Shown: positions 15,440-33,825 of the stretch, piece after piece | How the letters are laid out: each line of letters opens with the position of its first letter | Numbering within the stretch: position 1 is the first letter of the stretch | From: Solirubrobacterales bacterium | Lineage (GTDB): Bacteria; Actinomycetota; Thermoleophilia; Solirubrobacterales; Solirubrobacteraceae | DNA length: 34,802 bases | Assembly: GCA_019244745.1 (NCBI GenBank) | Contig: JAFASF010000417.1 | Location: 1-34,802, forward strand | Direction: 5' to 3' | Program-made: the position numbers and the translations under genes | The notes under the pieces: generated by a model | The model's input: the letters and a program-made list of their open reading frames with translations, nothing else | Database searches by the model: none | Told to the model about the DNA's origin: nothing

Positions 15440-16206
15440 CCTATCTCGACGACCTGTTCGGCCTCGCCGGACAGACCGCCGTCATCACCGGCGCCACCAG
15501 CGGACTCGGAGCGGCGAGCGCGATCGGCCTCGCCGGCGCCGGCGCCACCGTGATCGTGAGCGGCCGCGACCGCGAGCGGGGGGAGCGAGTGGTGGATGAG
15601 ATCACCGCGGCCGGCGGTAGCGCAGAGCTGGAGCTCGCGGATCTCGCCGATGCCGGCGCCACGATCGCGCTCGCGGAGCGCATCCTCGAGCGCCACGAAC
15701 CGGTGGACATCCTCGTCAACGCCGCCGGGGTGTTCATGCGGGGTGACGCCGTCGAGGTCACGCTCGAGGACTGGGAGGGGCTCATGCGCACCAACGTGAC
15801 CAGCACGTTCCTGCTCTGTCAGCGCTTTGGACAGGGGATGATCGCCCGCGGTCGGGGGAAGATCATCAACTTCTCCTCCACCGACGGCTTTCTCGGCGTG
15901 CCGGAGCAGGTGGCCTACAACGTCAGCAAGGGCGCGATCGTGCAGCTCACCCGCACGCTCGGCGCGGAATGGATCCGCCACGGGGTGAACGTCAACGCGG
16001 TCGCTCCGTGCGACTTCGCGACGCCGATGATCGCCCCGTTCATGGACCAACCCGAGTACCGCGACTGGATCATGGAGGCGATTCCCGCCGGCCGCGTGGG
16101 CCAGCCGCGCGAGATCGTCGGCGCGGTGTTGCTCCTGGCCTCGGGAGCCTCGGACATGATGGCGGGCCACAATCTGCTGGTCGACGGCGGGCGGACGGTG
16201 ATCTGA
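15436..16206 (+). CDS. Short-chain dehydrogenase/reductase
   Basis: A 256-residue classical SDR with TGATSGLG (cofactor loop), NAAG, the catalytic Ser in NFSST, YNVSK (Tyr and Lys of the active site), and the C-terminal LLVDGG motif. It interconverts a hydroxyl and a carbonyl with NAD(P). The ATG is inside the end of the LLM gene (ATGA), which fixes the start and shows translational coupling. It is the last enzyme gene of the operon that begins at 11327. The substrate is probably the alcohol or ketone intermediate of that unknown pathway. Confidence 0.9.
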   Translation: MTYLDDLFGLAGQTAVITGATSGLGAASAIGLAGAGATVIVSGRDRERGERVVDEITAAGGSAELELADLADAGATIALAERILERHEPVDILVNAAGVFMRGDAVEVTLEDWEGLMRTNVTSTFLLCQRFGQGMIARGRGKIINFSSTDGFLGVPEQVAYNVSKGAIVQLTRTLGAEWIRHGVNVNAVAPCDFATPMIAPFMDQPEYRDWIMEAIPAGRVGQPREIVGAVLLLASGASDMMAGHNLLVDGGRTVI

Positions 16207-29649: not shown

Positions 29650-31080
29650 ATGTCGACCACGAGGTCGCGGCCGAGCACCGATCTACGAACGGACGGCGCC
29701 GCCGCCCTGGAGTGGGCGGCGCGCTACCTCGAGCGCGTCGGCGAGCTCCCGGTGCTCGCACAGGTCGCGCCGGGCGAGATCCGCCGGCGCCTGCCGACCA
29801 CCGCGCCCGAGGAGCCCGAGCCGTTCTCAAACATCCTTTCGGATCTCGACGAAGTGCTGCTCCCCGGAATCACGCACTGGCAGCACCCCCGCTACTTTGC
29901 CTACTTCGCCACCAGCTCGGCCGAGCCGGCGATCCTCGCCGAGCTGCTCGCCGCCGCGCTCAACTCGATCGCGATCCTGTGGCGCACGGCGCCCGCGGCA
30001 ACCGAGCTCGAGGGTGTGGTGCTCGACTGGGCCGCGCACCTGCTCGGGCTGCCGCCAGGCTGGCACGGGCACATCGAGGACAGCGCGTCGACGTCCACGC
30101 TGACCGCGATCATCGCGGCGCGGGAGGCGACCGGGCGCGACCTCGTGGTGTGCTCCGAGCACGCGCACTCCTCGGTCGACAAGGCCGCGCGCATGCTGCG
30201 GATGCGTCTGCACAAGGTTCCGTGCGACGAACAGTTCCGGATGCGCACGGACGGGCTCGATGAGGTCCTGTCCGAGGCCGCCGTTATCGTGGCTACTGTT
30301 GGTACGACCGCGTCGACGGCGGTGGATGCGGTTCCGGCGATCGCGGACGCGTGCGACCGGGCGAGAGGCCGTAAGCACGGTGGCGGCCGGGAGGACGGTG
30401 GCGGCCATGGGCACGCCGGCAGCCGGGACCGCGCCGGCAGCCGTGACCACGCCGGCGCATGGCTGCACGTCGACGCGGCGTACGCCGGCTCGGCGATGGT
30501 GTGCCCCGAGCACCGCTGGGCGTTCGCCGGCGTGGACCGGGCCGACTCGGTCGTCGTCAACGCCCACAAGTGGATGCTGACCACCATGGACTGCTCGCTC
30601 TTGTGGACGCGCCGGCCCGAGGACTTCCGCAACGCGTTCAGCCTGATCCCCGAGTACCTGAGGACGCCCGACGCCGAGGACGCGCTCAGCCTGAGCGAGT
30701 ACGGACCCGCGCTCGGGCGGCGCTTCCGCGCGCTCAAGCTGTGGGCCGTGCTGCGCTGCTACGGACGCAACGGCCTGCAGGCGCACATCCGCGGCGGGGT
30801 GGAGTTCGCGGCAGCGTTCGAGCAGTGGGTGCGATCGGAGGCCGGGTGGGAGGTGTGCGCGCCGCGCCACTTCTCGGTCGTGTGCTTCCGGCTCGAGGGC
30901 GAGGACGACCGCAACCGGGCGCTGCTCGAGCGGGTCAACGCGAGCGGCGAGATCTTCATCTCCCACGCGATGCTCGCCGGTCGCTATGTGCTGAGGCTCG
31001 CGGTCGGGCAGATGCACACTACCGCGGACGATGTGCGCCGCGCCTGGGACGTGCTCCGCCGCGAGGCGCGCACGCTGTGA
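29650..31080 (+). CDS. Aromatic-L-amino-acid decarboxylase-type PLP enzyme
   Basis: A 476-residue group II PLP decarboxylase. HPRYFAYFATSS (79-90), DSASTSTLTAIIAARE (144-159), VATVGTTASTAVD, WLHVDAAYAG with PLP-ring Asp275, and the Schiff-base K307 in NAHKW are present. Usual substrates are tryptophan, phenylalanine, tyrosine or DOPA, giving arylalkylamines. Between the DACDRARG helix and WLHVDAA, homologues have one or two residues; here about 28 low-complexity residues (243-270) made of six-residue repeats are inserted by an 18-bp minisatellite. The reading frame is intact and flanking motifs are normal, so activity is likely. NAHKW rather than NPHKW is a small variation. Its stop overlaps the next gene's GTG. 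Confidence 0.88.
   Translation: MSTTRSRPSTDLRTDGAAALEWAARYLERVGELPVLAQVAPGEIRRRLPTTAPEEPEPFSNILSDLDEVLLPGITHWQHPRYFAYFATSSAEPAILAELLAAALNSIAILWRTAPAATELEGVVLDWAAHLLGLPPGWHGHIEDSASTSTLTAIIAAREATGRDLVVCSEHAHSSVDKAARMLRMRLHKVPCDEQFRMRTDGLDEVLSEAAVIVATVGTTASTAVDAVPAIADACDRARGRKHGGGREDGGGHGHAGSRDRAGSRDHAGAWLHVDAAYAGSAMVCPEHRWAFAGVDRADSVVVNAHKWMLTTMDCSLLWTRRPEDFRNAFSLIPEYLRTPDAEDALSLSEYGPALGRRFRALKLWAVLRCYGRNGLQAHIRGGVEFAAAFEQWVRSEAGWEVCAPRHFSVVCFRLEGEDDRNRALLERVNASGEIFISHAMLAGRYVLRLAVGQMHTTADDVRRAWDVLRREARTL
30377..30458 (+). repeat. In-frame 18-bp minisatellite inside the decarboxylase gene
   Basis: Four full units (30377-30394, 30395-30412, 30413-30430, 30431-30448) and a partial fifth. Units 1 and 2 share ACGGTGGCGGCC, and units 3 and 4 share CGCCGGCAGCCG. 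The encoded six-residue units are GGGRED, GGGHGH, AGSRDR, AGSRDH, then AGA. Length is a multiple of three, so copy-number change would keep the frame. Confidence 0.85.
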
Positions 31081-32513
31081 TCGCGGTTCCTGCGGTTCCG
31101 ATCCCGTCGAACGGGTTCCCGCGGCCGCCGGCGTTCATCGGCGCGCCCGCCGTGCGCCGCCCGGTTCGCGGCATCCCGCCGATCCCGCGGAACCCGTTCA
31201 TCGCGCCGAACGGCGACTCCGAGATTCACGATGACGCCTGGCAGACCGACGCCTACACGCGCGGCGGCCCGCTCGGGCGCTCGCCGCGGACGTTCTCGTC
31301 GATGCTCAACCCGATCGGCGATTGCGGCTCGATCACGTTCGACCGGCGCGGACGGGTGGTGTCGATCTGCGTCGGGCTGGGCGGGCCGCGGCTGTACATG
31401 TTCGATCCGCGGACGCTGGCCCCGCTCGCGACGTTCGACCTGCCGCCGCGCCAGACGGTCCCTACCAATATCTTCCAGGACTTCACCGGGGGCGGGTACT
31501 TCTATCTCGACGACCAGGGCCGAGTCATCACCGGCACCAACACCCGGCACATCTGCGTGATCGCCGAACGCACCGGGGCACCCGGCTTCAGGCTCGTTCG
31601 CGACTACGACCTGAGCCGGGTCCTGCGCCCCGCCGAGCAGATCACATCGGCGCTGCCCGACTCGCGCGGCCTCGAATGGTTCGTCGCGCGGACGGACGGC
31701 GTGGTCGGGACGCTCAACTTCACAACCGGCAGGATCCGCGCCATCCGCCTGGGGCGCGGCGCGGATGGGGAAATTGAGAACTCGTTCGCGACCGACCAGC
31801 ACGGCGGCGTGTACATCGCCACGAACCGTCGTCTGTATCGCTTCATCGCCGACGCGAACGGACGGGCGAAGATCACCTGGCGGATCGCCTATCCGAACAC
31901 CTTCGAGCGCAAGCCCGGGCAGGTCGATGCCGGCACCGGGACGACCCCTACGGTGATGCCGGGCGGGTACGTGAACATCATCGACAACGCCGACCCCATG
32001 GACGTCATGGTCTACCGTACGGCGCTGCGCCCGAAGTGGGGTCGGACCGTTTGCCGGGTCCCGGTGTTCGCCCGCGGCGCGAGCGCCGACGAGAACTCCC
32101 TGATCTCGGTCGGTCGTTCGATGATCGTCGAGAACAACTACGGCTACACCGGCCCCACCTCGATCGCCGGCGGCAAGCTGACCGCGCCCGGGTTCGAGCG
32201 CATCGACTTGAGCCGCGAGGGGCGCGGCTGCCGCGTGGTCTGGATCAACCGCCGCGAGCGCGCGCCCACCGTCGTCTCGAAGCTGTCCGTCGCCAACGGG
32301 CTTATCTACACCTATACCAAGGGGCCCGGCCGCAGCGACCCGTGGTACTGGACCGCGCTCGACTTCCGCACCGGCCGTGCGGTGTTCAAGGCCCTCGCCG
32401 GCACGGGGTCGTTCAACTACAACAACAACTACTCCGGGATCGCGATCGGCCCGAACCGCACGGCCTACCTGGGCGTGCTGGACGGCATCATCGCGCTCCG
32501 GGATTCCAGGTAA
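31077..32513 (+). CDS. Unrecognised propeller-like protein coupled to the decarboxylase
   Basis: A 478-residue protein without a recognised family name. It opens with a Pro/Val-rich stretch (IAVPAVPIPSNG), then NGDSEIHDDAWQTDAYTRGG, and continues with repeating strands such as GSITFDRRGRVVSICVGLGG, GGGYFYLDDQGRVITGTNT, DQHGGVYIATNRRLYRF and SGIAIGPNRTAYLGVLDGII. That suggests a beta-propeller of SMP-30/PQQ-like type. No convincing signal peptide, membrane segment or metal motif is seen. GTG 31077 overlaps the decarboxylase stop (GTGA), so the two are translationally coupled and probably functionally linked. The 3' end is followed by three tiled palindromes. Confidence 0.75.
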   Translation: MIAVPAVPIPSNGFPRPPAFIGAPAVRRPVRGIPPIPRNPFIAPNGDSEIHDDAWQTDAYTRGGPLGRSPRTFSSMLNPIGDCGSITFDRRGRVVSICVGLGGPRLYMFDPRTLAPLATFDLPPRQTVPTNIFQDFTGGGYFYLDDQGRVITGTNTRHICVIAERTGAPGFRLVRDYDLSRVLRPAEQITSALPDSRGLEWFVARTDGVVGTLNFTTGRIRAIRLGRGADGEIENSFATDQHGGVYIATNRRLYRFIADANGRAKITWRIAYPNTFERKPGQVDAGTGTTPTVMPGGYVNIIDNADPMDVMVYRTALRPKWGRTVCRVPVFARGASADENSLISVGRSMIVENNYGYTGPTSIAGGKLTAPGFERIDLSREGRGCRVVWINRRERAPTVVSKLSVANGLIYTYTKGPGRSDPWYWTALDFRTGRAVFKALAGTGSFNYNNNYSGIAIGPNRTAYLGVLDGIIALRDSR

Positions 32514-32523
32514 GAACTTGGAA

Positions 32524-32595
32524 GGCCGGGCTGCATGCAGCCCGGCCCGGCGGGGCGCATGCGCCCCGCCGCCGGTCGGCGCATGCGCCGACCGG
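32524..32595. terminator. Three tiled perfect 24-bp palindromes centred on GCATGC
   Basis: Palindromes at 32524-32547, 32548-32571 and 32572-32595 abut with no gap, each perfectly symmetric about a central GCATGC. Left arms are GGCCGGGCT, CGGCGGGGC and CCGGTCGGC, so symmetry is kept while arm sequence differs. Each RNA would fold as a 10-bp GC stem with a CAUG loop. They fill the gap between converging genes, fitting a bidirectional terminator array. Confidence 0.85.
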
Positions 32596-32601
32596 GCCCT
32601 G

Positions 32602-33825
32602 CTATTTCAGCTCGGAGGAGGTCTTGCCCAGGAGCTGGCGGGCCACAACCAGCAGCTGGATCTGCTGCGTGCCCTCGAAGATGTCGAGGATCTTCACGTC
32701 GCGGGTCCACTTCTCGAGCAGCTCGCGCTCGCCGTAGCCGACCGCGCCCGCGAGCGCGACGCAGCGGAGCGCGACGTCCGTGCCGACGCGGCCGGCCTTG
32801 GCCTTGGCCATCGAGGCCTGCAGCGAATTGGGCTGGCGGTTGTCGGCCATCCAGGCGGCGCGCAGCGTGAGCAGACGCGCAGCCTCCCACTCGGCCTCCA
32901 TCGCGATGAACTCCGCGGCGGCCGCGCTCTGGGCGTGCGGCTGGAGGTCGTAGTCGATCTCGACGCCGGCGTCGGCCAGCAGCTCGCGGGTGCGGTCGAG
33001 ACACGCGCGGGCCACGCCGATCGCCATGCCGGCGACGAACGGGCGGGTGTTGTCGAACGTCTGCATGACGCCGGCGAATCCGCGCCTGGGCTCGATCTCG
33101 GGGCTCCCGAGGAGGTTCTGCTTGGGCACGCGGCAGTCCTCGAGCCTGAAGTTCGCGGTGTCCGAGGCCCGGATCCCGAGCTTGTGCTCGAGCCGCTCGA
33201 GCTTCAGGCCGGGGTTGTCGCGCTCGACGACGAACGACTTGATGGCGGCGCGGCCCTGGTGGCGGTCGAGCGTGGCCCACACCACGATGAGCTCGGCCCG
33301 GTCGCCCGAGGTGACGAAGATCTTCTCGCCGTTCAGGACGTACTCGTCGCCGTCGAGCCTCGCGGTGGTGCGGATCGCGGCGGAGTCCGAGCCGGCCTCG
33401 GGCTCGGTGATCGCCATCGCGGCCCATTTGCCGCCGAACCGCGCGAGCTGCTGCTCGTCCGCGACGGCGGCGATCGCGGCCTGGCCGAGGCCCTGACGGG
33501 GCATGGCCAGCATCAGTCCCACGTCGCCCCAGCACAGCTCGATCAGCCCGAGCAGGCTCGCCATGTTGCTCCCGTTGCGGTTGCGCTCGGCGCTCGTCGC
33601 GCTGCCGGCGCGCGAGCCGTTGCCGACGGTGCCGGCGCCGGCGCCATCGAGCCCGCCGCCCTCGTTCATGCCGTCGATCACCGCGGCGAGCATGTCGAGC
33701 TCCTTGGGGTAGGAGTGCTCGGCGGAGTCGTACCTGCGTGAGTTGGGGCGGAAGATCTCGGTCGCGACGTGATGGGCCTGGGTTACGAGCTGCTCGAACT
33801 TCCGGGGGATCTCGAGGTTGATCAT
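32602..33825 (-). CDS. Acyl-CoA dehydrogenase
   Basis: A 407-residue ACAD-family flavoprotein. AMAITEPEAGSDSA is the FAD/substrate loop, FVTSGD the second flavin segment, and the catalytic Glu is E384 in DIFEGTQQIQ near the C-terminus. It catalyses alpha-beta dehydrogenation of an acyl-CoA and passes electrons to ETF. An unusual Gly/Ala/Ser-rich linker (about 52-88) replaces a short loop in the N-terminal helical domain. It is ten bases downstream of a second ACAD gene and co-transcribed with it, so the two may form a heteromer or act in sequence. Start ATG at 33825; the ribosome site is weak. Confidence 0.9.
   Translation of the reverse strand: MINLEIPRKFEQLVTQAHHVATEIFRPNSRRYDSAEHSYPKELDMLAAVIDGMNEGGGLDGAGAGTVGNGSRAGSATSAERNRNGSNMASLLGLIELCWGDVGLMLAMPRQGLGQAAIAAVADEQQLARFGGKWAAMAITEPEAGSDSAAIRTTARLDGDEYVLNGEKIFVTSGDRAELIVVWATLDRHQGRAAIKSFVVERDNPGLKLERLEHKLGIRASDTANFRLEDCRVPKQNLLGSPEIEPRRGFAGVMQTFDNTRPFVAGMAIGVARACLDRTRELLADAGVEIDYDLQPHAQSAAAAEFIAMEAEWEAARLLTLRAAWMADNRQPNSLQASMAKAKAGRVGTDVALRCVALAGAVGYGERELLEKWTRDVKILDIFEGTQQIQLLVVARQLLGKTSSELK

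What the first reader, a model, noticed from the sequence alone, without database searches (positions are those of the whole stretch)
32524..32595. Three perfect 24-bp palindromes tiled without gaps, all centred on GCATGC
Each block is exactly 24 bp and perfectly symmetric, and the three abut (32524, 32548, 32572). They share only the central GCATGC plus GC-rich arms, so arm changes are compensated on both sides. This argues for selection on pairing or on dyad symmetry, not simple duplication. A single hairpin would be enough to terminate converging genes; three in register suggest an array, a protein-binding or nucleoid site, or an amplifying palindromic element.
Basis: seen in the sequence. 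Interest (0 to 1): 0.75.

Follow-up and report, generated by a model that had tools for sequence, protein, structure and literature searches.

The report
Dispersed three-palindrome element between genes
Some uncultured soil bacteria carry, between their genes, a small DNA element made of three back-to-back mirror-image hairpins whose letters change freely as long as both arms change together; what keeps it that way is not known.

Summary
It is not a one-off: the same genome has nine such loci (16 pairs in register, control 0), and the triple pattern matches in 28 of 232 genomes of the order, 27 of them in four genera. In the window's genus 39 of 47 arrays have exactly three units. In 46 aligned arrays 98.9% of cells pair, 433 are changed on both sides and only 3 are G·U. 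Arrays hug stop codons (39 of 52 facing 3' ends within 20 nt), are enriched between convergent genes, but also lie between tandem and divergent genes. Some orthologous junctions share arrays with different arms, most lack them, and one 72-mer sits at two unrelated loci. Best reading: a new REP-like family of dispersed three-hairpin elements, held to strict Watson-Crick symmetry and acting as a hairpin barrier at transcript boundaries (inferred). The mobiliser is unknown; the REP transposase was found in 1 of 7 carriers tested. A second structured repeat splits some arrays.

The parts
32524..32547 (.). unit 1, perfect 24-bp palindrome (10-bp stem, CATG loop)
   Evidence: the same 24-mer is also a unit at L030 (G000:C266)
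32548..32571 (.). unit 2, perfect 24-bp palindrome
   Evidence: the same 24-mer is a unit at L201 (G025)
32572..32595 (.). unit 3, perfect 24-bp palindrome
32514..32523 (+). 10-nt spacer between the + strand stop codon and the array (ends GGAA, one of the tetramers enriched at array edges)
32596..32601 (-). 6-nt spacer between the array and the - strand stop codon
31077..32513 (+). convergent gene on the left, about 479 codons by a simple gene caller, no Pfam match
   Evidence: Pfam was run on the longer ORF 30459-32513
32602..33825 (-). convergent gene on the right, acyl-CoA dehydrogenase

Best explanation
The three palindromes are one copy of a dispersed, REP-like extragenic element of Solirubrobacterales: three abutting 24-bp palindromes (10-bp stems with CATG loops), copied to new intergenic sites now and then and afterwards inherited at those sites. 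Shown: dispersal, the prevailing three-unit form in this genus, compensated arm evolution with almost no G.U, a nearly constant RCATGY centre, positions next to stop codons and between genes of every orientation, presence or absence at orthologous junctions. Inferred: because G.U is almost absent, symmetry is kept at the DNA level (hairpin or cruciform), or in transcripts of both strands at once, or is renewed by template-switch correction during replication. Inferred: once in place the array acts as a two-way hairpin barrier at transcript ends, which is why it is tolerated or kept next to stop codons. The enzyme that copies it is unknown.
For: Nine loci in the own genome, control 0; 28 of 232 genomes of the order, of which 27 in g1, g2, g37 and g33. 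In g1 39 of 47 arrays have three units; of 10 two-unit rows five read as three-unit arrays with one unit split by another element. Without any symmetry filter, 97 of 106 units implied by the GCATGC pairs in the stretches of G000, G025 and G009 are perfect. 46 arrays: 98.9% of 1380 cells paired, 433 double changes, 3 G.U, covariation score 0.848 against 0.192 in shuffles. 182 of 219 units perfect; 21 of 48 mismatches at the outermost pair. 125 perfect 24-mers inside arrays against 2 outside in 470 kb. 39 of 52 facing 3' ends within 20 nt; convergent junctions enriched: odds ratio 6.5 against array-less spacers of 30 bp or more, 3.9 (p 2e-4) against all array-less junctions. The same 72-mer at two loci of G025 without flank similarity, and a copy shortened by exactly 24 bp from core to core. 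RNA folds of both strands give three hairpins, z -5.5 and -6.3.
Against: No species-specific burst: arm similarity within genomes equals that between genomes (0.631 and 0.627, permutation p 0.36). Arrays share positions between species at several junctions, which a freely jumping element would not show. No target-site duplication was seen and no mobiliser found; PF01797 was found in one (G016) of seven array-bearing genomes tested (the genomes are incomplete). Flank motifs as a whole scored no better than DNA further out. A conserved CATG centre needs a reader that is not identified. The array-bearing records that bear a name here are all MAGs.
Confidence: 0.55

Rival explanations
1. Native bidirectional transcription terminator or 3'-end stabiliser: transcripts of both strands need the hairpins, so only Watson-Crick pairs survive and the loop must be self-complementary.
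For: Median 8.5 nt to the facing stop codon, convergent enrichment, upstream stop nearer than downstream start in 24 of 26 tandem rows (one row, L054, duplicates L213, and three rows have large negative distances from the crude gene caller), strong hairpins on both strands.
Against: 9 of 45 arrays lie between divergent genes, with Pfam matches on both sides at L024, L208, L210 and L222 (the one at L208 left is below Pfam's cut-off); no T-run after the window array on either strand (other arrays not scanned); most readable orthologous junctions do without; does not explain three 24-bp units in register or the conserved CATG.
Confidence: 0.25
2. Binding array for a dimeric DNA-binding or nucleoid protein that reads RCATGY, three sites 24 bp apart.
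For: The centre is nearly constant: 205 GCATGC, 13 ACATGT, 1 GCATGA of 219 units (CATG was a condition of that count). A look at the 24-mers next to each of 74 arrays with any centre found one further unit, with CGTG. Regular spacing.
Against: Arms vary at all nine outer pairs yet stay symmetric; a protein reading half-sites would fix arm letters. GCATGC also occurs outside arrays (110 of 246 in the fetched stretches).
Confidence: 0.1
3. Mutational artefact: replication template switching turns any near-palindrome perfect, without selection.
For: Double changes almost without G.U intermediates, mismatches mainly at the outermost pair, as template-switch correction would leave them (PMC8794818, passages seen).
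Against: Does not create three 24-bp units in register, the conserved CATG, arm G+C of 0.89 against 0.70, or the copies at unrelated loci. May well act together with the best explanation.
Confidence: 0.1

Closest known systems
REP / BIME / REPIN extragenic palindromes (GTAG- and CGTC-tagged)
   Same: Short dispersed palindromic stem-loops, a share of them close behind stop codons, in clusters, with complementary stem changes between subfamilies (PMC3733652, PMC12306157, PMC3116915; passages seen)
   Different: No GTAG or CGTC tag at the array edge; perfect 24-bp units, mostly three in register; almost no G-T pairs, whereas PMC3733652 reports GT pairing as often observed in GTAG REPs; PF01797 in 1 of 7 carriers tested
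Mitochondrial repetitive or double-hairpin elements (RHE, DHE)
   Same: GC-rich repetitive single, double and triple hairpins in intergenic DNA of sponge mitochondria (PMC2800124, passages)
   Different: Those are organellar, and their stems are described as conserved in the case seen; here bacterial, fixed 24-bp units, conserved CATG centre, arms of widely different sequence
Clusters of hairpins as intrinsic terminators
   Same: Contiguous hairpins downstream of stop codons (PMC8355165, passages)
   Different: Perfect symmetry, fixed unit length and loop, also upstream of divergent gene starts

Membership tests
REP (GTAG/CGTC super-families) | unpaired GTAG or CGTC tag at one end | tested here: not met
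   GTAG within 6 nt of the edge in 4 of 74 arrays (control 60 nt out: 4), CGTC in 1 of 74 (control 8)
REP / REPIN | associated Y1 tyrosine transposase (RAYT, PF01797) | tested here: not met
   found in 3 of 13 genomes, of which one (G016) carries arrays; not found in G000, G003, G009, G013, G025, G028, which carry arrays; the genomes are incomplete
REP-like extragenic palindromes in the loose sense | dispersed, extragenic, palindromic, many copies | tested here: met
   (about 9 to 20 arrays in the richest g1 genomes, far fewer than in classical REP genomes)
Intrinsic terminator | hairpin followed by a U-run at transcript ends | tested here: not met
   no T-run follows the window array on either strand; other arrays were not scanned for U-runs, and no RNA data were available
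Rfam RNA families | match to a curated family at gathering score | tested here: not met
   no match at or above a gathering score (window 32300-32900, and six loci with arrays or the companion); one search listed two weak hits far below it
IS200/IS605-type or other transposon | target-site duplication or defined ends | tested here: inconclusive
   array edges show TGTT/AACA in 19 of 74 (control 1) and TTCC/GGAA in 11 of 74 (control 2); the flanks as a whole are no more alike than DNA 40-120 nt out; no empty site close enough to read a duplication

The most novel reading that the evidence does not exclude
A bacterial element selected as DNA structure and not as RNA or as sequence: three single-strand hairpins or cruciforms with CATG tips, copied by an unknown enzyme that reads the hairpin tip, with the letters of the arms free, and itself used as a landing pad by a second hairpin element that inserts at the centre of a palindrome.
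Probability: 0.3. Interest if true: 0.8.

Novelty: new variant of a known kind. Interest (0 to 1): 0.62.

Why it matters
It is a clean natural case in which structure is conserved and sequence is largely free, with very few G·U intermediates. That makes an old question testable: are compensated stems kept by selection step by step, or rewritten in one event by template switching? It also adds a repeat family, not described in the listings of the searches named in this report, to a little-studied class of Actinomycetota, and a candidate hairpin-targeting partner element.

Tried and rejected
Rfam: nothing at gathering score. REP transposase: in 1 of 7 carriers tested. Orientation by flank motif: the total likelihood of the flanks (252) was lower than that of flanks 40-120 nt outward (265-268), so a direction of the element rests only on the local tetramers TGTT/AACA and TTCC/GGAA and is weak. 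Species-specific burst: none. Orthologous arrays as closer relatives: arm identity 0.52-0.78 in six pairs (two of six above the 95th percentile, 0.741, of a background with mean 0.555), so mostly not distinguishable. Pure terminator: rejected because of checked divergent sites. The first background for convergent enrichment (spacers of 30 bp or more) leaves out 26 of 39 array-less convergent junctions and so flatters the result; against all junctions the odds ratio is 3.9. Literature: the listings of searches (10 to 20 papers shown each, 2) showed no title or abstract describing this family; most subscription papers and preprints are not held.

Full report
Observation. The window holds, at 32524-32547, 32548-32571 and 32572-32595, three perfect 24-bp palindromes that abut. 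They fill most of the space between two convergent genes: the + strand stop is 10 nt to the left, the - strand stop (acyl-CoA dehydrogenase) 6 nt to the right. As RNA each strand folds into three 10-bp hairpins with CAUG loops, z -5.5 and -6.3 against dinucleotide shuffles.

It is a family. In the own genome GCATGC-N18-GCATGC occurs 16 times at nine loci, the reversed control 0 times. The strict pair pattern matches in 33 of 146 genomes of the family, with high counts in genera g1 (6 of 28 genomes), g2 (4 of 4) and g37 and 4 pairs in one genome of g33; four single hits lie in other genera, and the two of these whose letters were printed are asymmetric. The triple pattern with RCATGY centres matches in 28 of 232 genomes of the order: 7 in g1, 2 in g2, 17 in g37, 1 in g33, 1 in g40. 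One of the two rows in G013 is visibly not palindromic, and I did not inspect the single hit in G161 (g40).

Anatomy. Of 57 array rows (L054 duplicates L213), 45 have three units, 10 two, 1 four, 1 one. With more loci from other genera the 74 arrays of two or more units are 54 of three, 13 of two, 5 of four, one of five, one of six. In g1 the counts are 39 of three, 7 of two, 1 of four; elsewhere 15, 6, 4, 1 and 1. So three is the rule in g1 and looser in the others. Of the 219 units 182 are perfect and 30 have one mismatch; 21 of 48 mismatches are at the outermost pair; the centre is GCATGC in 205, ACATGT in 13, GCATGA in 1. CATG was a condition for being counted; looking at the 24-mers next to each array with any centre added one more unit, with CGTG (L204). 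Without any symmetry filter, the 67 GCATGC pairs in the stretches of G000, G025 and G009 imply 106 units, of which 97 are perfect, 5 have one mismatch, 2 two, 1 three and 1 five. Arms are 89% G+C against 70% for the loci; in 470 kb, 125 perfect 24-bp palindromes lie in arrays and 2 outside, one of these being the remaining unit of a decayed array.

Pairing. On 46 of 54 three-unit arrays aligned without gaps, 98.9% of 1380 cells pair, 433 are changed on both sides, and only 3 are G·U; the covariation score is 0.848, against 0.192 (sd 0.012) in 500 shuffles and at most 0.148 when partners are slid. The number of further pair types alone does not exceed the shuffles (60 against 57.8). The arrays left out are named under Tried and rejected. 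A stem kept for the sake of one RNA strand should pass through and retain G·U pairs. PMC3733652 (passages) reports GT pairing as often observed in GTAG REPs and takes it to suggest RNA function. Its near absence here points to DNA-level symmetry, to a need in both transcripts, or to one-step correction by template switching (PMC8794818, passages). This is inference.

Place. With arrays masked and a simple codon-based gene caller, 47 arrays of g1 lie in 16 convergent, 20 tandem and 9 divergent junctions, 2 at contig edges. Array-less junctions in the same stretches are 39, 227 and 51, or 13, 107 and 47 if only spacers of 30 bp or more are counted. Convergent enrichment is odds ratio 3.9 (p 2e-4) against all of them and 6.5 (p 1.3e-5) against the longer spacers; the first is the fairer figure. 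39 of 52 facing 3' ends are within 20 nt, median 8.5; facing starts are never nearer than 15 nt, median 44.5. Of the nine divergent sites I checked six with Pfam: both neighbours match at L024, L208 (VTT below the cut-off), L210 and L222; at L202 and L218 only the right neighbour was submitted, and it matched, weakly at L202. L025, L206 and L231 were not checked. So a terminator alone does not explain the family.

Comparison of junctions. The acyl-CoA dehydrogenase junction could be read in 17 genus genomes, the own one included; 2 have an array (the window and G025), both starting 9 nt after the first base of the stop codon. G009, which has arrays elsewhere, has none there. Junction C (L025) could be read in 24 of 25 loci; three (G000, G009, G025) have three units with different arms (in G025 one of them with a CGTG centre), G003 has palindrome, companion, palindrome, the other 20 have no CATG-centred palindrome. 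Several further orthologous pairs carry arrays, some across genera. Arm identity in six orthologous pairs is 0.52-0.78 against a background mean of 0.555 and 95th percentile of 0.741. Copying between sites does occur: C8 and C392 of G025 share the whole 72-mer plus GGA and GAACG at its edges, with no flank similarity found; C514 carries the C443 array shortened by exactly 24 bp from core to core. But arms are no more alike within than between genomes.

Companion. Beside arrays L026, L027, L030, L203 and L211 and in junction C of G003 lies a second structured repeat of about 75 nt. Ten copies give 98.6% paired cells and six pairs with double changes. A model of it finds 31 to 33 copies each in G000, G009, G010 and G023 (33 candidates a genome were scored, so these are lower bounds), also in genomes without the GCATGC pattern, and 23 of 146 family genomes have a match. 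In L203 and L211 stretches complementary to each other lie on either side of it, as if it had entered the centre of a palindrome (my reading). G025 has two matches, both in arrays.

Verdict.

Noticed in passing
L026:9566-9650, L030:9525-9606, L027:9702-9763 and 15978-16044, L025:4429-4488, L222:1589-1645, L225:4442-4514: A second dispersed structured repeat of about 75 nt (covarying 15-bp stem, conserved loop GCTCGGCATCC.GCCTCGC and tail GAGTCRTCCGGC), 31 or more copies in four genomes, sometimes in tandem pairs about 100 nt apart; no Rfam match in six loci searched. It splits array units.
   Followed up: partly
L025:1995-2040 and loci L321-L344: Next to the start of a conserved gene a GAGTCTAG-like box (TAGACTC on the gene's strand) recurs in most of the species read by eye, close before the start codon; it looks like a leaderless promoter's -10 box, and the arrays abut it where present.
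   Followed up: no
G003 (C10, C63, C117, C152): A subfamily with ACATGT centres; a middle unit with core CCGGAACATGTTCCGG recurs at four loci of one genome.
   Followed up: no
G025:C514 (L214:831-878): Array shortened by exactly one unit from core to core, leaving a chimeric unit: recombination or slippage between units.
   Followed up: yes
array centres: The centre is mostly YGCATGCR, an alternating pyrimidine-purine octamer (pairs 9 and 10); RCATGY is also, from memory, a restriction-enzyme site. Meaning unknown.
   Followed up: no
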